From assembly GCF_003385955.1 (NCBI RefSeq), contig NZ_QRDW01000006.1, forward strand, positions 1 through 64,000: a stretch of 64,000 nt of DNA. Reading direction: 5' to 3'. Made by a program: the position numbers and the translations under genes. The DNA comes from Aestuariispira insulae. Its GTDB lineage: Bacteria; Pseudomonadota; Alphaproteobacteria; UBA8366; Aestuariispiraceae. The notes beneath the pieces are model-generated. The model did not search any database. It was given only the letters and a program-made list of their open reading frames with translations, and was not told the origin of the DNA. This document shows positions 8,356 through 64,000 of this stretch, piece after piece; position 1 is the stretch's first letter; every line of letters begins with the position of its first letter.

Positions 8356-9513
8356 ATGAATCAGGCCGAATTTCCAAAACGCCAGACCGAGGATATGAGC
8401 GATCGCGCCTTTCGCATGGGCGAAGGTAGGATCAGCGGCTTTATCTCCGTTGCGCTCGGCCTGCTGAGCATCCTGGCTGTGCTTTGTTACAAATTCCCAA
8501 GCTACCTCACCACACCGGAACTGCGCGCCGCCTATGATCCCGCCCTTTTGCGCGAGATCCTGAAATATGGCATGTGGGCCTCGATCACCTTCGGCCTGCT
8601 GACCTTTATCCTGAACCGGCGCAAACGGCTGGGGGCGGTTGGCATTCTGGCGACTTTGACCGCCTTTGCCCTGGGCGGCTATTGGGCCGAGGGCCCAGCC
8701 ATTGAGCCGACTGCGTATTTTGCAGGCTTGGACTGGCTGGTGCTGGATCTTCTGGCCACGGCCACCGTCTTTATCTTCATTGAGAAGCTCTGGCCGAAAT
8801 ATCGGGAACAGGCGATCCTGCGTCCGGAATGGGGCCATGACCTGGTCTATTTCGCCTTCAATCATCTGATGATCGGTGTGATCCTGTTGATCGTGAACGG
8901 TTTTGCGCCAAGCTATTTCAATTGGGCGGTGTCCGCCGGCTTCCAGGCCTGGATCCAGGACCTGCCGCTGATCCTTCAGGTGATCGGTCTGATCTTTGCC
9001 GCCGATTTTGCGCAGTATTGGGTCCATCGCCTGTTCCACACGGTGCCGTTCCTCTGGCGCTTTCACGCGGTACATCACAGTTCAGAAAACATGGACTGGC
9101 TGGCCGGTTCGCGCACCCATTTTCTGGATACGCTGTGCGTGCGATCCTTCTCCATGGTGATGATCTACCTTTTGGGTGCATCGAAAGAGGCACTGGATAT
9201 CTATGTGGTCTTCGCCAGTTTCCAGGCGGTCTTCATCCATGCCAATTTCAGCGGCAATTTCGGTCCGCTGCGCTATCTGATCACCACACCGCAGTTTCAT
9301 CACTGGCATCATTCGTCGGACGCAATCGCGATTGATATGAATTATGCCGCCCATCTGCCGCTGCTGGACAAAATTTTTGGCACTTACCTCATGCCGGGGC
9401 AGCATTGGCCGGAAAAATACGGCACCGTTGGCGACCCGCTGCCCCGGGGCATCATCAAGCAGCATCTTTACCCCTTCCTGCCGGCACCAAAATCCGAAAC
9501 TCAGCCCAAATAG
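8356..9513 (+). CDS. Sterol desaturase / fatty acid hydroxylase superfamily membrane di-iron enzyme
   Basis: A 385-aa integral membrane protein. Several hydrophobic segments fill roughly residues 30-200. The di-iron histidine clusters follow: HRLFH, then FHAVHHSSE, then FHHWHHS in the C-terminal third. These are the histidine boxes of the fatty acid hydroxylase superfamily, which uses O2 to hydroxylate or desaturate lipids in the membrane. The length exceeds the core family (about 250 aa) because of extra N-terminal membrane segments. AGGGGG at 8343-8348 precedes two overlapping ATGs (8352 out of frame, 8356 in frame). The 3' end overlaps the convergent rhombosortase gene by 59 bp. Substrate unknown. 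Confidence 0.82.
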   Translation: MNQAEFPKRQTEDMSDRAFRMGEGRISGFISVALGLLSILAVLCYKFPSYLTTPELRAAYDPALLREILKYGMWASITFGLLTFILNRRKRLGAVGILATLTAFALGGYWAEGPAIEPTAYFAGLDWLVLDLLATATVFIFIEKLWPKYREQAILRPEWGHDLVYFAFNHLMIGVILLIVNGFAPSYFNWAVSAGFQAWIQDLPLILQVIGLIFAADFAQYWVHRLFHTVPFLWRFHAVHHSSENMDWLAGSRTHFLDTLCVRSFSMVMIYLLGASKEALDIYVVFASFQAVFIHANFSGNFGPLRYLITTPQFHHWHHSSDAIAIDMNYAAHLPLLDKIFGTYLMPGQHWPEKYGTVGDPLPRGIIKQHLYPFLPAPKSETQPK

Positions 9514-10111
9514 AAGATAGTGCAGCCCAGATCAGGCCCAGAACCCCGCCAGCCAGGAAACCCGCCAGATGGGCGTCCGGCATGGCGGGCCAGGCCAGAT
9601 CCATCACCAAACTGTTCGTGCTCAGCATTTCATAGCCGATCTTGAAAAGCGCACCCAAGGCAAAGAGCCAACAAATGCGTCGGTCCAGAACATCGCGCAA
9701 CGCCACAAGGCAAAAAGCCAGTAGGCCGTTCAATATCGCGGAAAGACCACAATAATAGGCGATGTCCGGACGGCCCAGCCAGAGATAGCCATCCAAAACC
9801 ACCATCAGCACTGCTGAGACAAGGGCCAGCAGAGCGGCGCGGCAGCGGGCAATCATTTCCAGGAACAGGCCGATCAGCACAAAGGCAAGACCGTTCCAGA
9901 GCAAATGCTGCGGATCCAGATGAACCAGATGGCCGGTTACCAGCCGCCAATATTCACCGCCGACAATCGCCTCACGGTGGTAGGTAAAGATTTCGGGCAC
10001 AAAGCCCGCCACACCAGCCAGCGCCAGAAGAACGGCAAGACCACCCAGGGTGAACCAGGGCGGCGTAAGACCGCCCCGGTTTTCCTCGCCAGCCATAATC
10101 CAACCGGTCAT
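9455..10111 (-). CDS. rrtA: Rhombosortase (rhomboid-family serine protease)
   Basis: A 218-aa polytopic membrane protein of the rhomboid fold. The catalytic serine lies in YCGLSAILNG (about residue 122) and the histidine in MPDAHLAGFLAGG (about residue 182). An early VTGHLVHLDPQHLLWN segment carries the conserved His/Asn region. Rhombosortases cleave GlyGly-CTERM tails of exported proteins at the inner membrane. The gene overlaps the stop of the upstream VIT-vWA gene by ATGA (10108-10111), so the two are translationally coupled. That upstream protein ends in a GlyGly-CTERM-like tail, which makes it the obvious substrate. The family is best known from gammaproteobacteria such as Vibrio and Shewanella. 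Confidence 0.85.
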   Translation of the reverse strand: MTGWIMAGEENRGGLTPPWFTLGGLAVLLALAGVAGFVPEIFTYHREAIVGGEYWRLVTGHLVHLDPQHLLWNGLAFVLIGLFLEMIARCRAALLALVSAVLMVVLDGYLWLGRPDIAYYCGLSAILNGLLAFCLVALRDVLDRRICWLFALGALFKIGYEMLSTNSLVMDLAWPAMPDAHLAGFLAGGVLGLIWAALSSIWAEFRILVPAGRGKDAA

Positions 10112-12213
10112 TTCCGCCTCCCGCGGGACAGCAGCGCCACCCCACCCAGCAGAGCCATGAAGACCGCCCAGAACGGGCCAAGCGCACTGGAGCCGCCGCC
10201 ACTGGTGCCACCGCCGCTGTAGCTGGGACGCGGTTTCTGAAAGGCCGGTGTCTGTTGGTCCACGCGGTTGCTGGTGACCTGAGCCTGGGCGCGCGCGGCC
10301 TGGGCCAGCTGCTCACTTTCAACCCGATCCTTATTCTTCCGGTCAATGCCGCGTTGTTTGAAAACCTCTTCGCGCAGCACGATCATGGAGGTATAGGGTG
10401 TCACGATTCCGTTCTCGACCGAGAGATCCACCACCGCCTGCTTTCGGTCCTCATCAGCACCGAAGGTCGCATCATCCTTCATCATGCCTTCAATGGCAGC
10501 AAAGGCCCACAGACGCTCAATCTCGGGATTCTCGTCACTGGTCTCCGGGAAGGGAAAACGGGATTGATAGGTGACATCACGGCCCGATATCTTGGCCCGG
10601 ATCGTCACATCCGCCTCCCCGCCTTTCCAATAATGGCCGAACAGGACCAATTGCTGGCCACGATAGAGGCTGCCGATCCGCTGTGGCTCCAGGCTGGTCA
10701 CCTTGACCCCATCGATATCGACCGACATATCATGCAGCGCCTCATGCCCCAGCTTGCTGGTGGCGGACATGATCGCACCGACAATATCGTCACTGTTGGA
10801 AAGGGCCAGCGCCGTGCCGCCGGATTCGCTCGAAACCTGGGTCAGCAACGGCCGGTTGGCGCTGTTGCCCATCATCATGGTAAAGAGGCGCACATCCTGA
10901 TTTTGAACCAATTCCAGGAACTTCCGCTTTTCCGTTTCTCCCACATTGGCAACCCCGTCGGTCACCAGGATCAGACCCGTCGTGCGGTCGGCATCCAGTC
11001 CCTTGAGCCCCGTGGCCATCCCGGCATAGAGATTGGTGCCATTATCGGGCCGGACGGTTTTCAACAGATCGATCATCGAGCGGACATTCGCCTCGGTCGC
11101 GGGCTGGAAATCCCTTGTGAGCTCACGCACCGAACTGTCAAACAGGACGATCCGGAAGCGGTCGTTGGGCGGCACCTTGTGAAGCGCCTGCTCAACCCCT
11201 TCCAGCAGTGTATCGAACTTGCCCTCCATGGAGCCGGATTTATCCAGTACAAAGACCCAATCACGCCCCTTGGTGATCGGGGCCAGATCATCCCCCGGTG
11301 TCGCCACCAGCATGAAAGTGCCGCGCTTGCCCGCCTCCGGCTTATGGGTGATCAGGTCGATGGATCCAGGCAGGCCGTCTTGATGCCGCCAATAGGTGAT
11401 GATGTCCGTGTCAAGGCGGAACGGCTGGCTCTTCAGGGCGATTTCGCCCTGACCACCATCAATCGCCACGGCCTCCCCATCGCCTTCATAACCGGCCAAC
11501 CGGACACCGTTATCCAGATGCACCTTCCATTCATGGTCTTTCAGGCGGGTGATTTGGGCCTGGGGATGTTTCGGCAGGCGCAGGGCTTCGATCGGATAGC
11601 CGTTGCGCAGGGTAAGATCGAAAGAGAACCGACCCGTCACCTGGTCCTGGGACGTCCAAAAGGACATTTTTTCAGGATCAACCCCGCCCTCTTCCAGCGG
11701 ATAGTTATAGCGCCCGACACCGGTATCCATATGGGTTGGCTGGATATATCCCAGGCGGATCCTCACATCCTGGCCAGCGCGTACCGGCCAGACCGAGATA
11801 TCGAAGGTTTTATAGTCATCCTGCTCGGTCAGCGCCGCCTCGCGGCCGCTGGCCTTTTCCTCTTCGTAGATCTTGCGGGCCTCAGCCTTTTCCATCACCT
11901 CCCCCTGAACCGGCTTGCCGTCGATCCAATAGGTGAAGCTGCTGACCGCGGCCTTTTCCGGGACGGGGAAGGAATAGACCGCTTCCAGATCCCGGCCATG
12001 GGGATTGGTGAAAACCTGTTCCACCGTGGTGATGGCATAGCCATCCTCGATCACAACATCGACCTTGTGGTCCCGAATCTCCAGCGGCGCTTGCCCGCCA
12101 TGGACGGGGGTGAGCAGACCGGCCGCTTGCGCGTCGGTCAGGGTTGCCGTGCCCGCCACCAGCAGGCCCGAGAGACAGATCCCTGTCATGAGTTTTCGTT
12201 TCAAGGATATCAT
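10108..12213 (-). CDS. VIT and von Willebrand factor A domain protein with GlyGly-CTERM tail
   Basis: A 701-aa exported protein. It has a signal peptide (about residues 1-30), a VIT domain (about 35-165, with VFTNPHGRDLEAVYSFPVP), a vWA domain (about 305-480) with an intact MIDAS motif DKSGSM, a C-terminal region to about 640, and a tail of Gly/Ser spacer, hydrophobic helix and SRGRRK. The tail is a GlyGly-CTERM signal, not the LPxTG signal found in otherwise similar marine proteobacterial sortase-target proteins. The gene follows a 53-aa membrane protein and overlaps the rhombosortase. GAGGAG precedes the ATG at 12213, and a TetR-type operator lies just upstream of that site. Role: surface-displayed, metal-dependent adhesion or binding, by inference. 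Confidence 0.85.
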   Translation of the reverse strand: MISLKRKLMTGICLSGLLVAGTATLTDAQAAGLLTPVHGGQAPLEIRDHKVDVVIEDGYAITTVEQVFTNPHGRDLEAVYSFPVPEKAAVSSFTYWIDGKPVQGEVMEKAEARKIYEEEKASGREAALTEQDDYKTFDISVWPVRAGQDVRIRLGYIQPTHMDTGVGRYNYPLEEGGVDPEKMSFWTSQDQVTGRFSFDLTLRNGYPIEALRLPKHPQAQITRLKDHEWKVHLDNGVRLAGYEGDGEAVAIDGGQGEIALKSQPFRLDTDIITYWRHQDGLPGSIDLITHKPEAGKRGTFMLVATPGDDLAPITKGRDWVFVLDKSGSMEGKFDTLLEGVEQALHKVPPNDRFRIVLFDSSVRELTRDFQPATEANVRSMIDLLKTVRPDNGTNLYAGMATGLKGLDADRTTGLILVTDGVANVGETEKRKFLELVQNQDVRLFTMMMGNSANRPLLTQVSSESGGTALALSNSDDIVGAIMSATSKLGHEALHDMSVDIDGVKVTSLEPQRIGSLYRGQQLVLFGHYWKGGEADVTIRAKISGRDVTYQSRFPFPETSDENPEIERLWAFAAIEGMMKDDATFGADEDRKQAVVDLSVENGIVTPYTSMIVLREEVFKQRGIDRKNKDRVESEQLAQAARAQAQVTSNRVDQQTPAFQKPRPSYSGGGTSGGGSSALGPFWAVFMALLGGVALLSRGRRK

Positions 12214-12230
12214 TGGATTTCTCCTCTATA

Positions 12231-12243
12231 TGAACGCCGTTCA
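12231..12243. promoter_or_regulatory. TGAAC-N3-GTTCA operator 1
   Basis: TGAACGCCGTTCA lies between the 53-aa gene and the VIT-vWA gene, just upstream of the latter's ribosome site. It matches three other copies in the locus. It is the proposed binding site of the divergent TetR protein (inference). Confidence 0.7.
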
Positions 12244-12271
12244 ATATTCAGATGAAAAAGGGGATGTCCCG

Positions 12272-12433
12272 CTATCGGGCAAAGGGGTTTAACCGGTTTT
12301 CCAGGACCTGGATCAGGTCCGGTAAAAAAGTTGCCGCCGGTTTTGCCTGCATCAGGTAACTTGATAGAAAGATTGTCAGAATGCCGGCCATGGTGGCCAT
12401 GGAGGCAGCAAGGAACTGGGATTTACTCAACAT
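12272..12433 (-). CDS. Small single-pass membrane protein, 53 aa
   Basis: A small gene starting at ATG 12433 and ending with TAG at 12272-12274. An AAAGGA ribosome site lies 7 nt before the ATG. The product begins MLSKSQFLAASMATMAG, has one hydrophobic segment at about residues 9-28 and a short polar tail ending in NRLNPFAR. I do not recognise a family. It is the first gene of the minus-strand transcription unit continuing into the VIT-vWA protein and rhombosortase, with operator 2 about 25 nt upstream of its start. It could be a partner or chaperone of the surface protein in the inner membrane. The good ribosome site and position are the main evidence. Confidence 0.65.
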   Translation of the reverse strand: MLSKSQFLAASMATMAGILTIFLSSYLMQAKPAATFLPDLIQVLENRLNPFAR

Positions 12434-12457
12434 GATACCGTCCTTTCATTCTTTTAA

Positions 12458-12470
12458 TGAACATCGTTCA
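12458..12470. promoter_or_regulatory. TGAAC-N3-GTTCA operator 2
   Basis: TGAACATCGTTCA lies 25 nt upstream of the 53-aa gene start, where it would overlap the minus-strand promoter or early leader. A bound TetR repressor here would shut off the whole surface-protein operon (inference). Confidence 0.75.
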
Positions 12471-12507
12471 TTTTTTAGCGTGAACAAAACCGCTTTCGCG
12501 GATTTTC

Positions 12508-12534
12508 TGAACATCATTTATTGAACGCTGTTCA
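12508..12534. promoter_or_regulatory. TGAAC-N3-GTTCA operator 3 with adjacent degenerate half-site
   Basis: A perfect site TGAACGCTGTTCA lies at 12522-12534. A degenerate copy, TGAACATCATTTA, abuts it at 12508-12520. This pair sits in the middle of the divergent intergenic region next to a TATATA sequence at 12538-12543. Confidence 0.7.
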
Positions 12535-12574
12535 GTTTATATAGCTTGAACTGATCAGGGGCGCAACCGTAAAA

Positions 12575-12587
12575 TGAACGATGTTCA
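12575..12587. promoter_or_regulatory. TGAAC-N3-GTTCA operator 4 (autoregulatory)
   Basis: TGAACGATGTTCA lies 17 nt upstream of the TetR start codon and just before its AAGGA ribosome site. This suggests that the regulator represses its own gene. Confidence 0.75.
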
Positions 12588-12604
12588 AATTTTAAGGAAA
12601 AACC

Positions 12605-13210
12605 ATGGCCCGCCGGTCCGACCATAACCGAGAAGAACTCTATGCGCTGGCCATGCAGGCCGCCCGTGATATTGCGGTGCATGACGGGCTGAAGGGCCTG
12701 ACCGCGCGCAATATTGCCAAGCGGATCGGCTATTCCGCGGGCACGCTTTATAACCTGTTCAAGAATCTGGATGAGATCGCTCTGCATGTGAATGCGGGCA
12801 CGCTGGATCAGTTGCATGACCGCTTGGGCGAAGTGGCATTATCCGGCAAGCCGAAGAAGGATATCCGCCAGCTGCTGGACGCCTATCTTGATTTCATCGG
12901 CGGGAATGACCGGCTCTGGTCCCTGCTTTTCGACCATAAGCTGCCCGACGGCACGCCCCTGCCTGACTGGTACCGGGCGCGGATCGCGCGGGTTCTCTCC
13001 CTGCTGGAGGCGGCGCTTGCACCGCTTTTCCCGGAACCGGACCATCCGGAATGCCAGCTCTCTGCCCGCGTGCTCTGGTCCAGCCTGCACGGCATCTGCC
13101 AGCTGGCCAATGCTGACAAGCTGGAAATTGTCTCGGACGAGGATACAAGGGCGCTGGCCCATGCGCTGGTGGAAAACTACCTGGCGGGGTTGAAGGCACG
13201 GCTGGGGTAG
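12605..13210 (+). CDS. TetR-family transcriptional regulator with WHG-type C-terminal domain
   Basis: A 201-aa regulator. The N-terminal helix-turn-helix covers about residues 10-57 (LTARNIAKRIGYSAGTLYNL). The C-terminal ligand/dimer domain includes the WSSLHGICQL segment that marks the WHG subgroup of TetR proteins. AAGGA lies 6 nt before the ATG. The gene is divergent from the 53-aa/VIT-vWA/rhombosortase operon, and the same dyad TGAAC-N3-GTTCA occurs four times around both starts. Repression of both directions is therefore the simplest reading. The inducing ligand is unknown. Confidence 0.88.
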   Translation: MARRSDHNREELYALAMQAARDIAVHDGLKGLTARNIAKRIGYSAGTLYNLFKNLDEIALHVNAGTLDQLHDRLGEVALSGKPKKDIRQLLDAYLDFIGGNDRLWSLLFDHKLPDGTPLPDWYRARIARVLSLLEAALAPLFPEPDHPECQLSARVLWSSLHGICQLANADKLEIVSDEDTRALAHALVENYLAGLKARLG

Positions 13211-13434: not shown

Positions 13435-13743
13435 ATGAGGCGATCGGTAGTTTTCGGAGCATTGTTGCTCGGGGCTTGTCAAACAGTACCAGTCACACAG
13501 CACGGGAATGTGCTCGCAGCAGGACCAGACGCCGTGAAAGATTGCAAGAGCGCAGGTATCGTTTTCGGTCAATCCGATAAAGGTGGAGTGTGGATTAAGT
13601 ACGGAATCAATGAAGCCAAGATTGAAGCCATGGAGCAAGCCGAGCAAATACAAGCGACACACGTGACTTGGCAGGATTTTCAATCTAATAACGGCTGGAC
13701 CTCCGTAAAAGGAGAAGCTTGGAGATGCAAAGGACTTGACTAA
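13435..13743 (+). CDS. Small putative lipoprotein
   Basis: A 102-aa protein with a lipoprotein signal: basic start MRRS, hydrophobic core, lipobox LLLGAC with Cys at about residue 14. The mature part has a conserved-looking pattern (DAVKDCKSAGIVFG ... WIKYGINEAK ... A-EQ-QATHVTW) resembling the DUF4156 class of small envelope proteins; this match is from memory and uncertain. The start at 13435 is chosen because GGGGGAG lies 8 nt upstream and because the signal peptide begins there; an upstream in-frame start at 13378 would bury the signal. Base composition of the gene and its 220-bp upstream gap is visibly more AT-rich than its neighbours, a possible sign of transfer. Confidence 0.7.
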   Translation: MRRSVVFGALLLGACQTVPVTQHGNVLAAGPDAVKDCKSAGIVFGQSDKGGVWIKYGINEAKIEAMEQAEQIQATHVTWQDFQSNNGWTSVKGEAWRCKGLD

Positions 13744-63428: not shown

Positions 63429-64000
63429 CTATGCGGCAAGTTCCGCCGCCCTCTGATAGTCAATTTTGCCGGTTCCCAGCAGTGGCACCGCCGCCACCAC
63501 GCGCACCTCACGCGGCACCATCAGTTCGGCCACGCCTTCCTCTTTGGCATGGGCTGATAGGGCGGCCCTGGAGGCATCATCGCGATCAGTCACCAAAACC
63601 AGTTGTTCGCCTTTCCTGGCATCCGGCACGGCAATCACCGCATGAAGGCTGTCCGGCCAGAGTTTGGCCGCCTGCCCCTCCACTGCTGTAAGCGAAACCA
63701 TTTCACCCGCGATCTTGGCAAAGCGCTTGGCCCGCCCCTGGATGGTGACAAACCCATCCGCATCGATTGAGACAATATCGCCGGTATCGTACCAGCCGCC
63801 AGCCGGAGGCTGTAACTCACCCGGCCGGTCCGCCATCAGATAGCCTTTCATGATATTGGGACCGGAAACATACAACCTGCCGCCTTTCTCAATACCCGGC
63901 ACCGGTTTCAGTTCGGCCCGGATGCCTGGCAGCAGGCGCCCGACCGTACCTGCCTGGAAATGCATTGGTGAATTCACCGCGAGCACCGGTGCCGTCTCGG
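63429..64000 (-). CDS. aas: Acyl-ACP synthetase / 2-acylglycerophosphoethanolamine acyltransferase, C-terminal part (5' end off window)
   Basis: About 190 C-terminal codons of an AMP-forming enzyme, entering from the right edge in frame as ETAPVLAVNSPMHF. It shows GRLYVSGPNIMKGYL, GGWYDTGDIVSIDADGFVTI and RAKRFAKIAGEMVSLTAVE, then the catalytic Lys region LLGTGKIDYQRA. The hinge reads GRAKRFAKIAGEMVS as in the acyl-ACP synthetase domain of Aas, which re-acylates lysophospholipids in the membrane. A plain fatty-acid or acyl-ACP ligase cannot be excluded because the acyltransferase domain would lie outside the window. Confidence 0.78.
   Translation of the reverse strand, partial: ETAPVLAVNSPMHFQAGTVGRLLPGIRAELKPVPGIEKGGRLYVSGPNIMKGYLMADRPGELQPPAGGWYDTGDIVSIDADGFVTIQGRAKRFAKIAGEMVSLTAVEGQAAKLWPDSLHAVIAVPDARKGEQLVLVTDRDDASRAALSAHAKEEGVAELMVPREVRVVAAVPLLGTGKIDYQRAAELAA

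What the first reader, a model, noticed from the sequence alone, without database searches (positions are those of the whole stretch)
9455..13210. TetR / 53-aa membrane protein / VIT-vWA / rhombosortase locus: a self-contained surface-display system
A VIT-vWA protein of the kind that elsewhere carries an LPxTG tail beside a class C sortase here carries a GlyGly-CTERM tail and is translationally coupled (ATGA) to a rhombosortase. A 53-aa membrane protein and a divergent TetR complete a one-substrate module. The sorting machinery appears swapped while the surface protein is kept. The small protein appears undescribed.
Basis: partly seen in the sequence, partly recalled or inferred. Interest (0 to 1): 0.78.

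Follow-up and report, generated by a model that had tools for sequence, protein, structure and literature searches.

The report
Lipid-linked regulon of a sorted protein
A bacterial adhesion-type protein is encoded with the membrane protease that should trim its tail, and one repressor appears to control this pair together with membrane-phospholipid repair genes, which makes the question of how such trimmed proteins are anchored testable; the protein/protease pairing itself was already known.

Summary
The protease is a true rhombosortase (TIGR03902, 114 bits, cut-off 84) overlapping the VIT-vWA gene by ATGA. The "swap" is not new: Haft & Varghese (2011, Fig. 3C) already show this protein family with GlyGly-CTERM, LPXTG+sortase or PEP-CTERM tails. 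Nor is it recent here: the same genome keeps the sortase version (class GN) as a distant paralogue. The 53-aa gene is not conserved (no credible match in 384 other Alphaproteobacteria or about 64 sister loci). The window's tail is missed by the GlyGly-CTERM model, but 41 of 63 homologous tails match it. "Surface display" is doubtful: the genome lacks type II secretion (no GspD over cut-off, no GspG).
New here: four perfect TGAACNNNGTTCA sites (0.08 expected) mark a TetR operator recurring with TetR at sister loci (20/22 versus 4/38 without). The same operator precedes a distant operon for a PGAP1-like hydrolase and an LplT-PlsC-Aas lysophospholipid flippase/acyltransferase. In three other genomes TetR sits beside that lipid operon and operators stay at the vWA gene; in five others the acyltransferase directly follows the rhombosortase. 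The module looks like part of a membrane-phospholipid regulon.

The parts
9455..10111 (-). rhombosortase (RrtA-type rhomboid protease), 218 aa, catalytic Ser124/His181
   Evidence: TIGR03902 114.1 bits vs cut-off 84; Pfam Rhomboid 1.7e-10; invariant S124 and H181 in alignment
10108..12213 (-). VIT-vWA protein, 701 aa, N-terminal signal-peptide-like segment; ATGA overlap with the rhombosortase gene
   Evidence: Pfam VIT 1.6e-35, VWA_3 1.3e-13; TIGR03788 227.7 bits, below cut-off 551.65; 45-60% identical relatives in Alpha-, Gammaproteobacteria, Desulfobacterota, Omnitrophota
11746..12075 (-). VIT domain (residues 47-156)
   Evidence: PF08487, 122 bits
10786..11256 (-). vWA domain (residues 320-476) with MIDAS motif DKSGSM at 324-329
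   Evidence: PF00092/PF13768; DxSGSM in 62/62 homologues; ITIH4/ITIH1 nearest solved structures
10111..10224 (-). C-terminal tail: Gly/Ser-rich motif, hydrophobic segment, RGRRK; divergent GlyGly-CTERM
   Evidence: sequence; not hit by TIGR03501, aligned homologous tails hit (41/63)
12272..12433 (-). 53-aa ORF with one hydrophobic segment and ribosome-binding site AAAGGACG; orphan
   Evidence: no relatives in 384 genomes or in sister loci
12605..13210 (+). TetR-family regulator (TetR_C_33), 201 aa
   Evidence: Pfam TetR_N 1.7e-7, TetR_C_33 9e-12; orthologues 35-54% identical at sister loci and in order relatives
12231..12243 (.). operator TGAACGCCGTTCA, just upstream of the VIT-vWA start
   Evidence: 4 exact in 64 kb, 0.08 expected
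12458..12470 (.). operator TGAACATCGTTCA, upstream of the 53-aa ORF
12522..12534 (.). operator TGAACGCTGTTCA, between the divergent genes
12575..12587 (.). operator TGAACGATGTTCA, just upstream of tetR
63441..64000 (-). 3' end of the LplT-PlsC-Aas gene (full match G000:C6:63444-66839), second operon of the proposed TetR regulon; its hydrolase partner and operator (C6:67868-67880) lie just outside the window
   Evidence: homologue L053 passes NF005291 acyl-[ACP]--phospholipid O-acyltransferase at 1667 bits

Best explanation
The locus is a dedicated VIT-vWA/rhombosortase pair under a TetR repressor, and it belongs to a membrane-phospholipid regulon. TetR binds TGAACNNNGTTCA sites in front of its own gene, the 53-aa ORF, the VIT-vWA gene and a distant hydrolase/LplT-PlsC-Aas operon (operators and co-distribution shown; binding inferred). 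When an unknown signal, most likely an acyl or lipid ligand, lifts repression, the VIT-vWA protein is exported by Sec and held in the inner membrane by its C-terminal helix (inferred from sequence). The rhombosortase cuts it near the Gly/Ser-rich motif and probably joins the new C-terminus to an ethanolamine phospholipid, as proposed from mass spectrometry for VesB in Vibrio cholerae (inferred by homology). Because this genome has no type II secretion system, the protein most likely stays lipid-anchored or membrane-associated in the periplasm. The LplT-Aas enzyme and hydrolase, made at the same time, supply, repair or remodel phospholipid. The vWA domain with its intact metal site then binds a still unknown ligand.
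For: Rhombosortase over cut-off and overlapping the target gene; the tail family matches GlyGly-CTERM; only one such tail found in the genome. Operators: four exact in the window. Among sister loci with at least 700 bp upstream, 20/22 with a TetR and 4/38 without have operators; Fisher p 5e-10, not corrected for relatedness. Three of those four exceptions (L069 = G034, L070 = G035, L095 = G433) are genomes whose TetR sits elsewhere, beside the hydrolase/LplT-Aas operon. Mirror image: in G000 and G442 the TetR sits at the vWA gene and exact operators lie in front of the distant hydrolase/LplT-Aas operon. In five gamma/desulfo genomes LplT-PlsC-Aas is the next gene after the rhombosortase (5 of 39 loci with downstream sequence). 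Gadwal 2018 (PMC6219818) reports a C-terminal glycerophosphoethanolamine on rhombosortase-processed VesB. GspD over cut-off and GspG are absent from G000, G034, G035, G433 and G442.
Against: Three of four TetR-type loci checked outside the alphas (G425, G426, G434) have no LplT-Aas at E 1e-100, and the fourth, G429, has a hit without operators or TetR. G424 has operators at vWA but none near its LplT-Aas. Many order relatives have TetR-hydrolase-LplT-Aas and no rhombosortase over cut-off, so the lipid enzymes do not exist only to serve it. Near the TetR genes of G034/G035 only one-mismatch operators are found. The five fused operons fall in only two clades of the vWA tree. The anchor chemistry has not been shown for any VIT-vWA protein. 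The TetR ligand class is only a guess from weak FasR/FadR/FabR similarity.
Confidence: 0.5

Rival explanations
1. Cut and release: the rhombosortase only cleaves the membrane tail, and the VIT-vWA protein becomes a soluble periplasmic protein. The link to lipid genes is co-regulation under envelope stress, not anchor chemistry.
For: No type II secretion in this genome; the TetR/LplT-Aas operon exists without rhombosortase in many order relatives; rhomboids are by default hydrolases (established knowledge).
Against: The closest studied rhombosortase gives a glycerophosphoethanolamine-modified, cell-associated product (PMC6219818).
Confidence: 0.27
2. One reading: a self-contained surface-display module in which sortase was exchanged for rhombosortase, with the 53-aa protein as a component.
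For: Gene order and pairing are real; homologues in Gammaproteobacteria and Pelagibius live in genomes with type II secretion, where surface display is plausible.
Against: No GspD over cut-off and no GspG here; 53-aa gene not conserved; sortase-type paralogue still present; the two types are deeply separated clades.
Confidence: 0.13
3. The tail is a plain membrane anchor that the rhombosortase does not process; the pair is adjacent for regulatory reasons only.
For: The window's tail is not recognised by TIGR03501.
Against: Rhombosortase adjacent or overlapping in about 45 of 64 loci across phyla; aligned tails match GlyGly-CTERM in 41/63.
Confidence: 0.06
4. The shared operator is the motif of a common TetR family, and the lipid operon and the vWA pair are unrelated targets of a broad regulator (this concerns only the link between the two operons and can hold together with the other readings).
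For: TetR orthologues occur in 19 of 43 order genomes, mostly without the vWA pair.
Against: In G000 only 8 exact sites exist genome-wide and 3 of them lie inside genes; the five remaining serve just these two operons and tetR. In five other genomes the acyltransferase gene directly follows the rhombosortase gene without any TetR.
Confidence: 0.25

Closest known systems
GlyGly-CTERM / rhombosortase dedicated systems (Haft & Varghese 2011, PMC3237569)
   Same: Rhombosortase next to its single target; VIT-vWA proteins with GlyGly-CTERM, LPXTG or PEP-CTERM alternatives are shown in their Fig. 3C; adjacency in single-target genomes in Table 3
V. cholerae VesB / rhombosortase RssP (Gadwal 2018, PMC6219818)
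   Same: Rhombosortase cuts a GlyGly-CTERM tail
   Different: VesB is a protease exported by type II secretion; here a VIT-vWA protein encoded with its own rhombosortase in a genome with no type II secretion system
Marine proteobacterial sortase target / class GN sortase (TIGR03788/TIGR03784)
   Same: VIT-vWA domains, single target next to its sorting enzyme; present in this same genome (L027)
   Different: About 24% identical, separate clade, LPxTA-type tail and sortase in place of rhomboid protease
LplT-Aas lysophospholipid repair (acyl-[ACP]--phospholipid O-acyltransferase, NF005291)
   Same: The co-regulated enzyme's homologue L053 scores 1667 bits vs cut-off 1349
   Different: Here under the same proposed operator as a rhombosortase pair; no report of this found
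GPI anchoring in eukaryotes
   Same: C-terminal membrane tail removed and replaced by a phosphoethanolamine-linked lipid (comparison made in PMC6219818); PGAP1 is a lipid-remodelling hydrolase and the co-regulated hydrolase has a weak PGAP1-like match
   Different: Analogy only; no homology between rhombosortase and GPI transamidase is claimed

Membership tests
Rhombosortase (TIGR03902) | score over the equivalog cut-off of 84 bits | tested here: met
   114.1 bits
Rhombosortase (TIGR03902) | Ser/His catalytic pair | tested here: met
   S124 and H181 invariant in 7 aligned members; G[FLA]S[GA] in 45/46
Rhombosortase (TIGR03902) | cleaves a GlyGly-CTERM substrate | not testable with these tools
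   needs experiment
GlyGly-CTERM (TIGR03501) | score over 15.5 bits | tested here: not met
   no match in own genome at E<=10 and none for the tail alone
GlyGly-CTERM (TIGR03501) | homologous position and layout with recognised GlyGly-CTERM tails | tested here: met
   41 of 63 aligned tails match TIGR03501, best 5.7e-6; one glycine of the motif over 90% conserved in the alignment
Marine sortase target (TIGR03788) | score over 551.65 bits | tested here: not met
   227.7 bits; the paralogue L027 does pass (682)
TetR family | TetR_N DNA-binding domain over cut-off | tested here: met
   31.4 vs 24 bits; TetR_C_33 46 vs 26.8
TetR family | palindromic operator at its divergent promoter, recurring with orthologues | tested here: met
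   binding itself not tested
Rhombosortase/type II secretion surface display (VesB type) | type II secretion system in the genome | tested here: not met
   GspD only C-terminal secretin matches, GspG none
Rhombosortase/type II secretion surface display (VesB type) | glycerophosphoethanolamine on the mature C-terminus | not testable with these tools
   needs mass spectrometry

The most novel reading that the evidence does not exclude
The rhombosortase and the co-regulated hydrolase/LplT-PlsC-Aas enzymes form one pathway: the protease transfers the VIT-vWA protein onto phosphatidylethanolamine, and the lipid enzymes make, remodel or recycle that anchor, a bacterial counterpart of GPI anchoring with its own regulator, working on the periplasmic side without type II secretion.
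Probability: 0.15. Interest if true: 0.85.

Novelty: new variant of a known kind. Interest (0 to 1): 0.5.

Why it matters
How rhombosortase products are held to the cell, and what lipid chemistry supports it, is open: the VesB work found a glycerophosphoethanolamine adduct but could not say which enzyme attaches it or whether an intact phospholipid is used. A dedicated one-substrate system sharing an operator with, and elsewhere sharing an operon-like arrangement with, a lysophospholipid flippase/acyltransferase gives named genes to delete and a single protein to weigh. It also shows rhombosortase pairs in genomes without type II secretion, so the accepted route to the surface cannot be general.

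Tried and rejected
Small-protein co-occurrence: no relative of the 53-aa protein in 384 other Alphaproteobacteria except one chance-level match inside a 218-aa frame (E 0.009), in any VIT-vWA locus (blastp) or as a neighbour cluster. The GlyGly model in the whole genome was uninformative, so a tail profile was built instead; that profile contains the window's own tail, so its strong self-match is expected. Three of the eight exact genome-wide operator sites (in L065, L066, L067) lie inside genes and were set aside as chance. Homology of the alternative regulator in gamma loci (L074) to the regulator beside class GN sortase loci (L167) was tested and not found. One tree row (L169) was translated in a wrong frame, sits on a branch of length 10 and should be ignored. 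Promoter and terminator scans gave no more than chance. Literature searches for TetR with VIT domain or with lysophospholipid transporter gave nothing relevant. No structure prediction was run.

Full report
What is there. The protease is a rhombosortase by the curated model (114.1 bits, cut-off 84) with the Ser124/His181 pair kept. The neighbouring protein carries a signal-peptide-like N-terminus, a VIT domain (47-156) and a vWA domain (320-476) with an intact DKSGSM metal site; its nearest solved relatives are inter-alpha-trypsin inhibitor heavy chains and, for the VIT part, PARP4. Stop and start overlap as ATGA. The TetR is divergent.

The tail. It has the expected layout: a Gly/Ser-rich motif, a hydrophobic helix and RGRRK. 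Its homologues at the same alignment position do match that model in 41 of 63 cases, and rhombosortase lies next to or overlaps the target in about 45 loci, so I treat it as a divergent GlyGly-CTERM. A profile of the 63 tails finds no second credible substrate in this genome (the profile includes the window's tail).

The swap is old and published. Haft and Varghese (2011, PMC3237569) already describe VIT-vWA proteins with GlyGly-CTERM, with LPXTG beside a sortase, or with PEP-CTERM, and the adjacency of rhombosortase and target in single-target genomes. In this very genome a second VIT-vWA protein (L027:5674-7830) passes the sortase-target model (682 bits, cut-off 551.65) and sits beside a class GN sortase (152 bits, just under its cut-off of 158). 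In a quick tree the four correctly read sortase-type proteins form a 100%-supported clade on a long branch, away from the rhombosortase-type set, in which the window groups with other alphaproteobacteria (row L169 was mistranslated and is ignored). So both lineages exist side by side.

The small protein. No relative was found in 384 other class genomes, apart from one chance-level hit inside a longer frame, nor in the sister loci, where TetR and vWA genes are typically separated by only about 190-240 bp. Its ribosome-binding site and hydrophobic segment make chance less likely, so it may be a young or fast-evolving gene, but it is not a conserved component of the system. Unrelated small one-helix ORFs sit in comparable places in L090 and L053, which is a lead only.

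How widespread. One scan of genome contigs returned 69 loci. Apart from three distant planctomycete proteins, those with a readable gene are 45-60% identical and come from Alpha- and Gammaproteobacteria, Desulfobulbaceae and Pelobacter, and one Omnitrophota bin. In the divergent position they carry either a TetR (22 of 60 with enough upstream sequence) or an unrelated helix-turn-helix regulator (23), never both.

The operator. Four exact TGAACNNNGTTCA palindromes lie in the window, all between 12231 and 12587 (expected 0.08). At sister loci the motif occurs in 20 of 22 with TetR and in 4 of 38 without (Fisher p 5e-10, not corrected for relatedness). Three of those four exceptions are explained by a TetR orthologue elsewhere in the same genome (G034, G035, G433); in the fourth, L071 (G424), no TetR was located.

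The second operon. Genome-wide there are eight exact sites. Three fall inside genes; besides the four of the module, the remaining one, with a second near-perfect site beside it, lies about 52 bp upstream of a secreted alpha/beta-hydrolase gene with weak PGAP1/DUF676-type matches. The next gene is a roughly 1140-aa LplT-PlsC-Aas protein (C6:63444-66839) whose 3' end is inside the window at 63441-64000. Its homologue in L053 passes the acyl-[ACP]--phospholipid O-acyltransferase model at 1667 bits. In order relatives the TetR orthologue sits directly beside this hydrolase and/or LplT-Aas gene. The arrangement is reciprocal: in G000 and G442 the TetR is at the vWA gene and exact operators lie in front of the lipid operon; in G034, G035 and G433 the TetR is at the lipid operon and operators lie in front of the vWA gene. 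In L076, L077, L083, L091 and L130 the LplT-Aas gene is the next gene after the rhombosortase, 5 of 39 loci with enough downstream sequence, in two clades of the tree.

Limits of that link. Outside the alphas three of four TetR-type genomes checked have no LplT-Aas at E 1e-100 (G425, G426, G434) and the fourth, G429, shows no operators there; G424 also lacks operators at its LplT-Aas. Many relatives have the TetR/lipid operon without rhombosortase. So the lipid genes are not exclusive helpers; shared control in response to the state of the membrane is the safer reading.

Where the protein ends up. In V. cholerae, VesB is cut by rhombosortase, linked to a glycerophosphoethanolamine moiety and exported by type II secretion (PMC6219818). 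This genome (99.4% complete) has no GspD over cut-off, only C-terminal secretin matches, and no GspG; four further alphaproteobacterial genomes with the pair are the same (G034, G035, G433, G442). Surface display by the known route is therefore not available, and a periplasmic, probably membrane-attached, protein is more likely. This step is inferred.

Verdict. The interpretation as a recent swap and a self-contained display system is not supported. The useful finding is the regulon that ties a dedicated rhombosortase pair to phospholipid repair and makes the anchor question testable.

Noticed in passing
L027:5674-8405 (G000:C1, about 627.7-630.4 kb): The same genome carries a true sortase-type VIT-vWA protein with a class GN sortase; its tail (LAGPATATPMTL...) lacks a clean LPxT[AG] motif, unlike the LPQTAT/LPQTGT tails of plasmid homologues.
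   Followed up: partly
L074:7102-7908:- and the same position in 22 other loci: A helix-turn-helix regulator of about 252 aa, without a good family match, replaces TetR in 23 VIT-vWA loci; the two regulators never co-occur.
   Followed up: partly
L090, 252 to 19 bp upstream of the vWA gene (77 aa); L053:5779-6021 (80-aa frame): Unrelated small one-helix ORFs lie directly in front of the vWA gene (Omnitrophota) or beside an operator in front of the hydrolase, in places comparable to the window's 53-aa ORF.
   Followed up: no
L025:11491-11829: In G034 the vWA/rhombosortase pair lies next to the tmRNA gene; the same flanking sequence is seen in L026, a possible insertion spot.
   Followed up: no
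window 8356-9513: Fatty acid hydroxylase (OlsE-like, below cut-off) convergent with the rhombosortase gene, 3' ends overlapping by 59 bp.
   Followed up: no
window 13435-13743: 102-aa ORF with a lipobox-like start (LLLGAC), no family match.
   Followed up: no
L021:10370-11888: In another family of the order, rhombosortase neighbours a rhombotarget lipoprotein (TIGR04179, 323 bits, cut-off 150) in place of a VIT-vWA protein.
   Followed up: no
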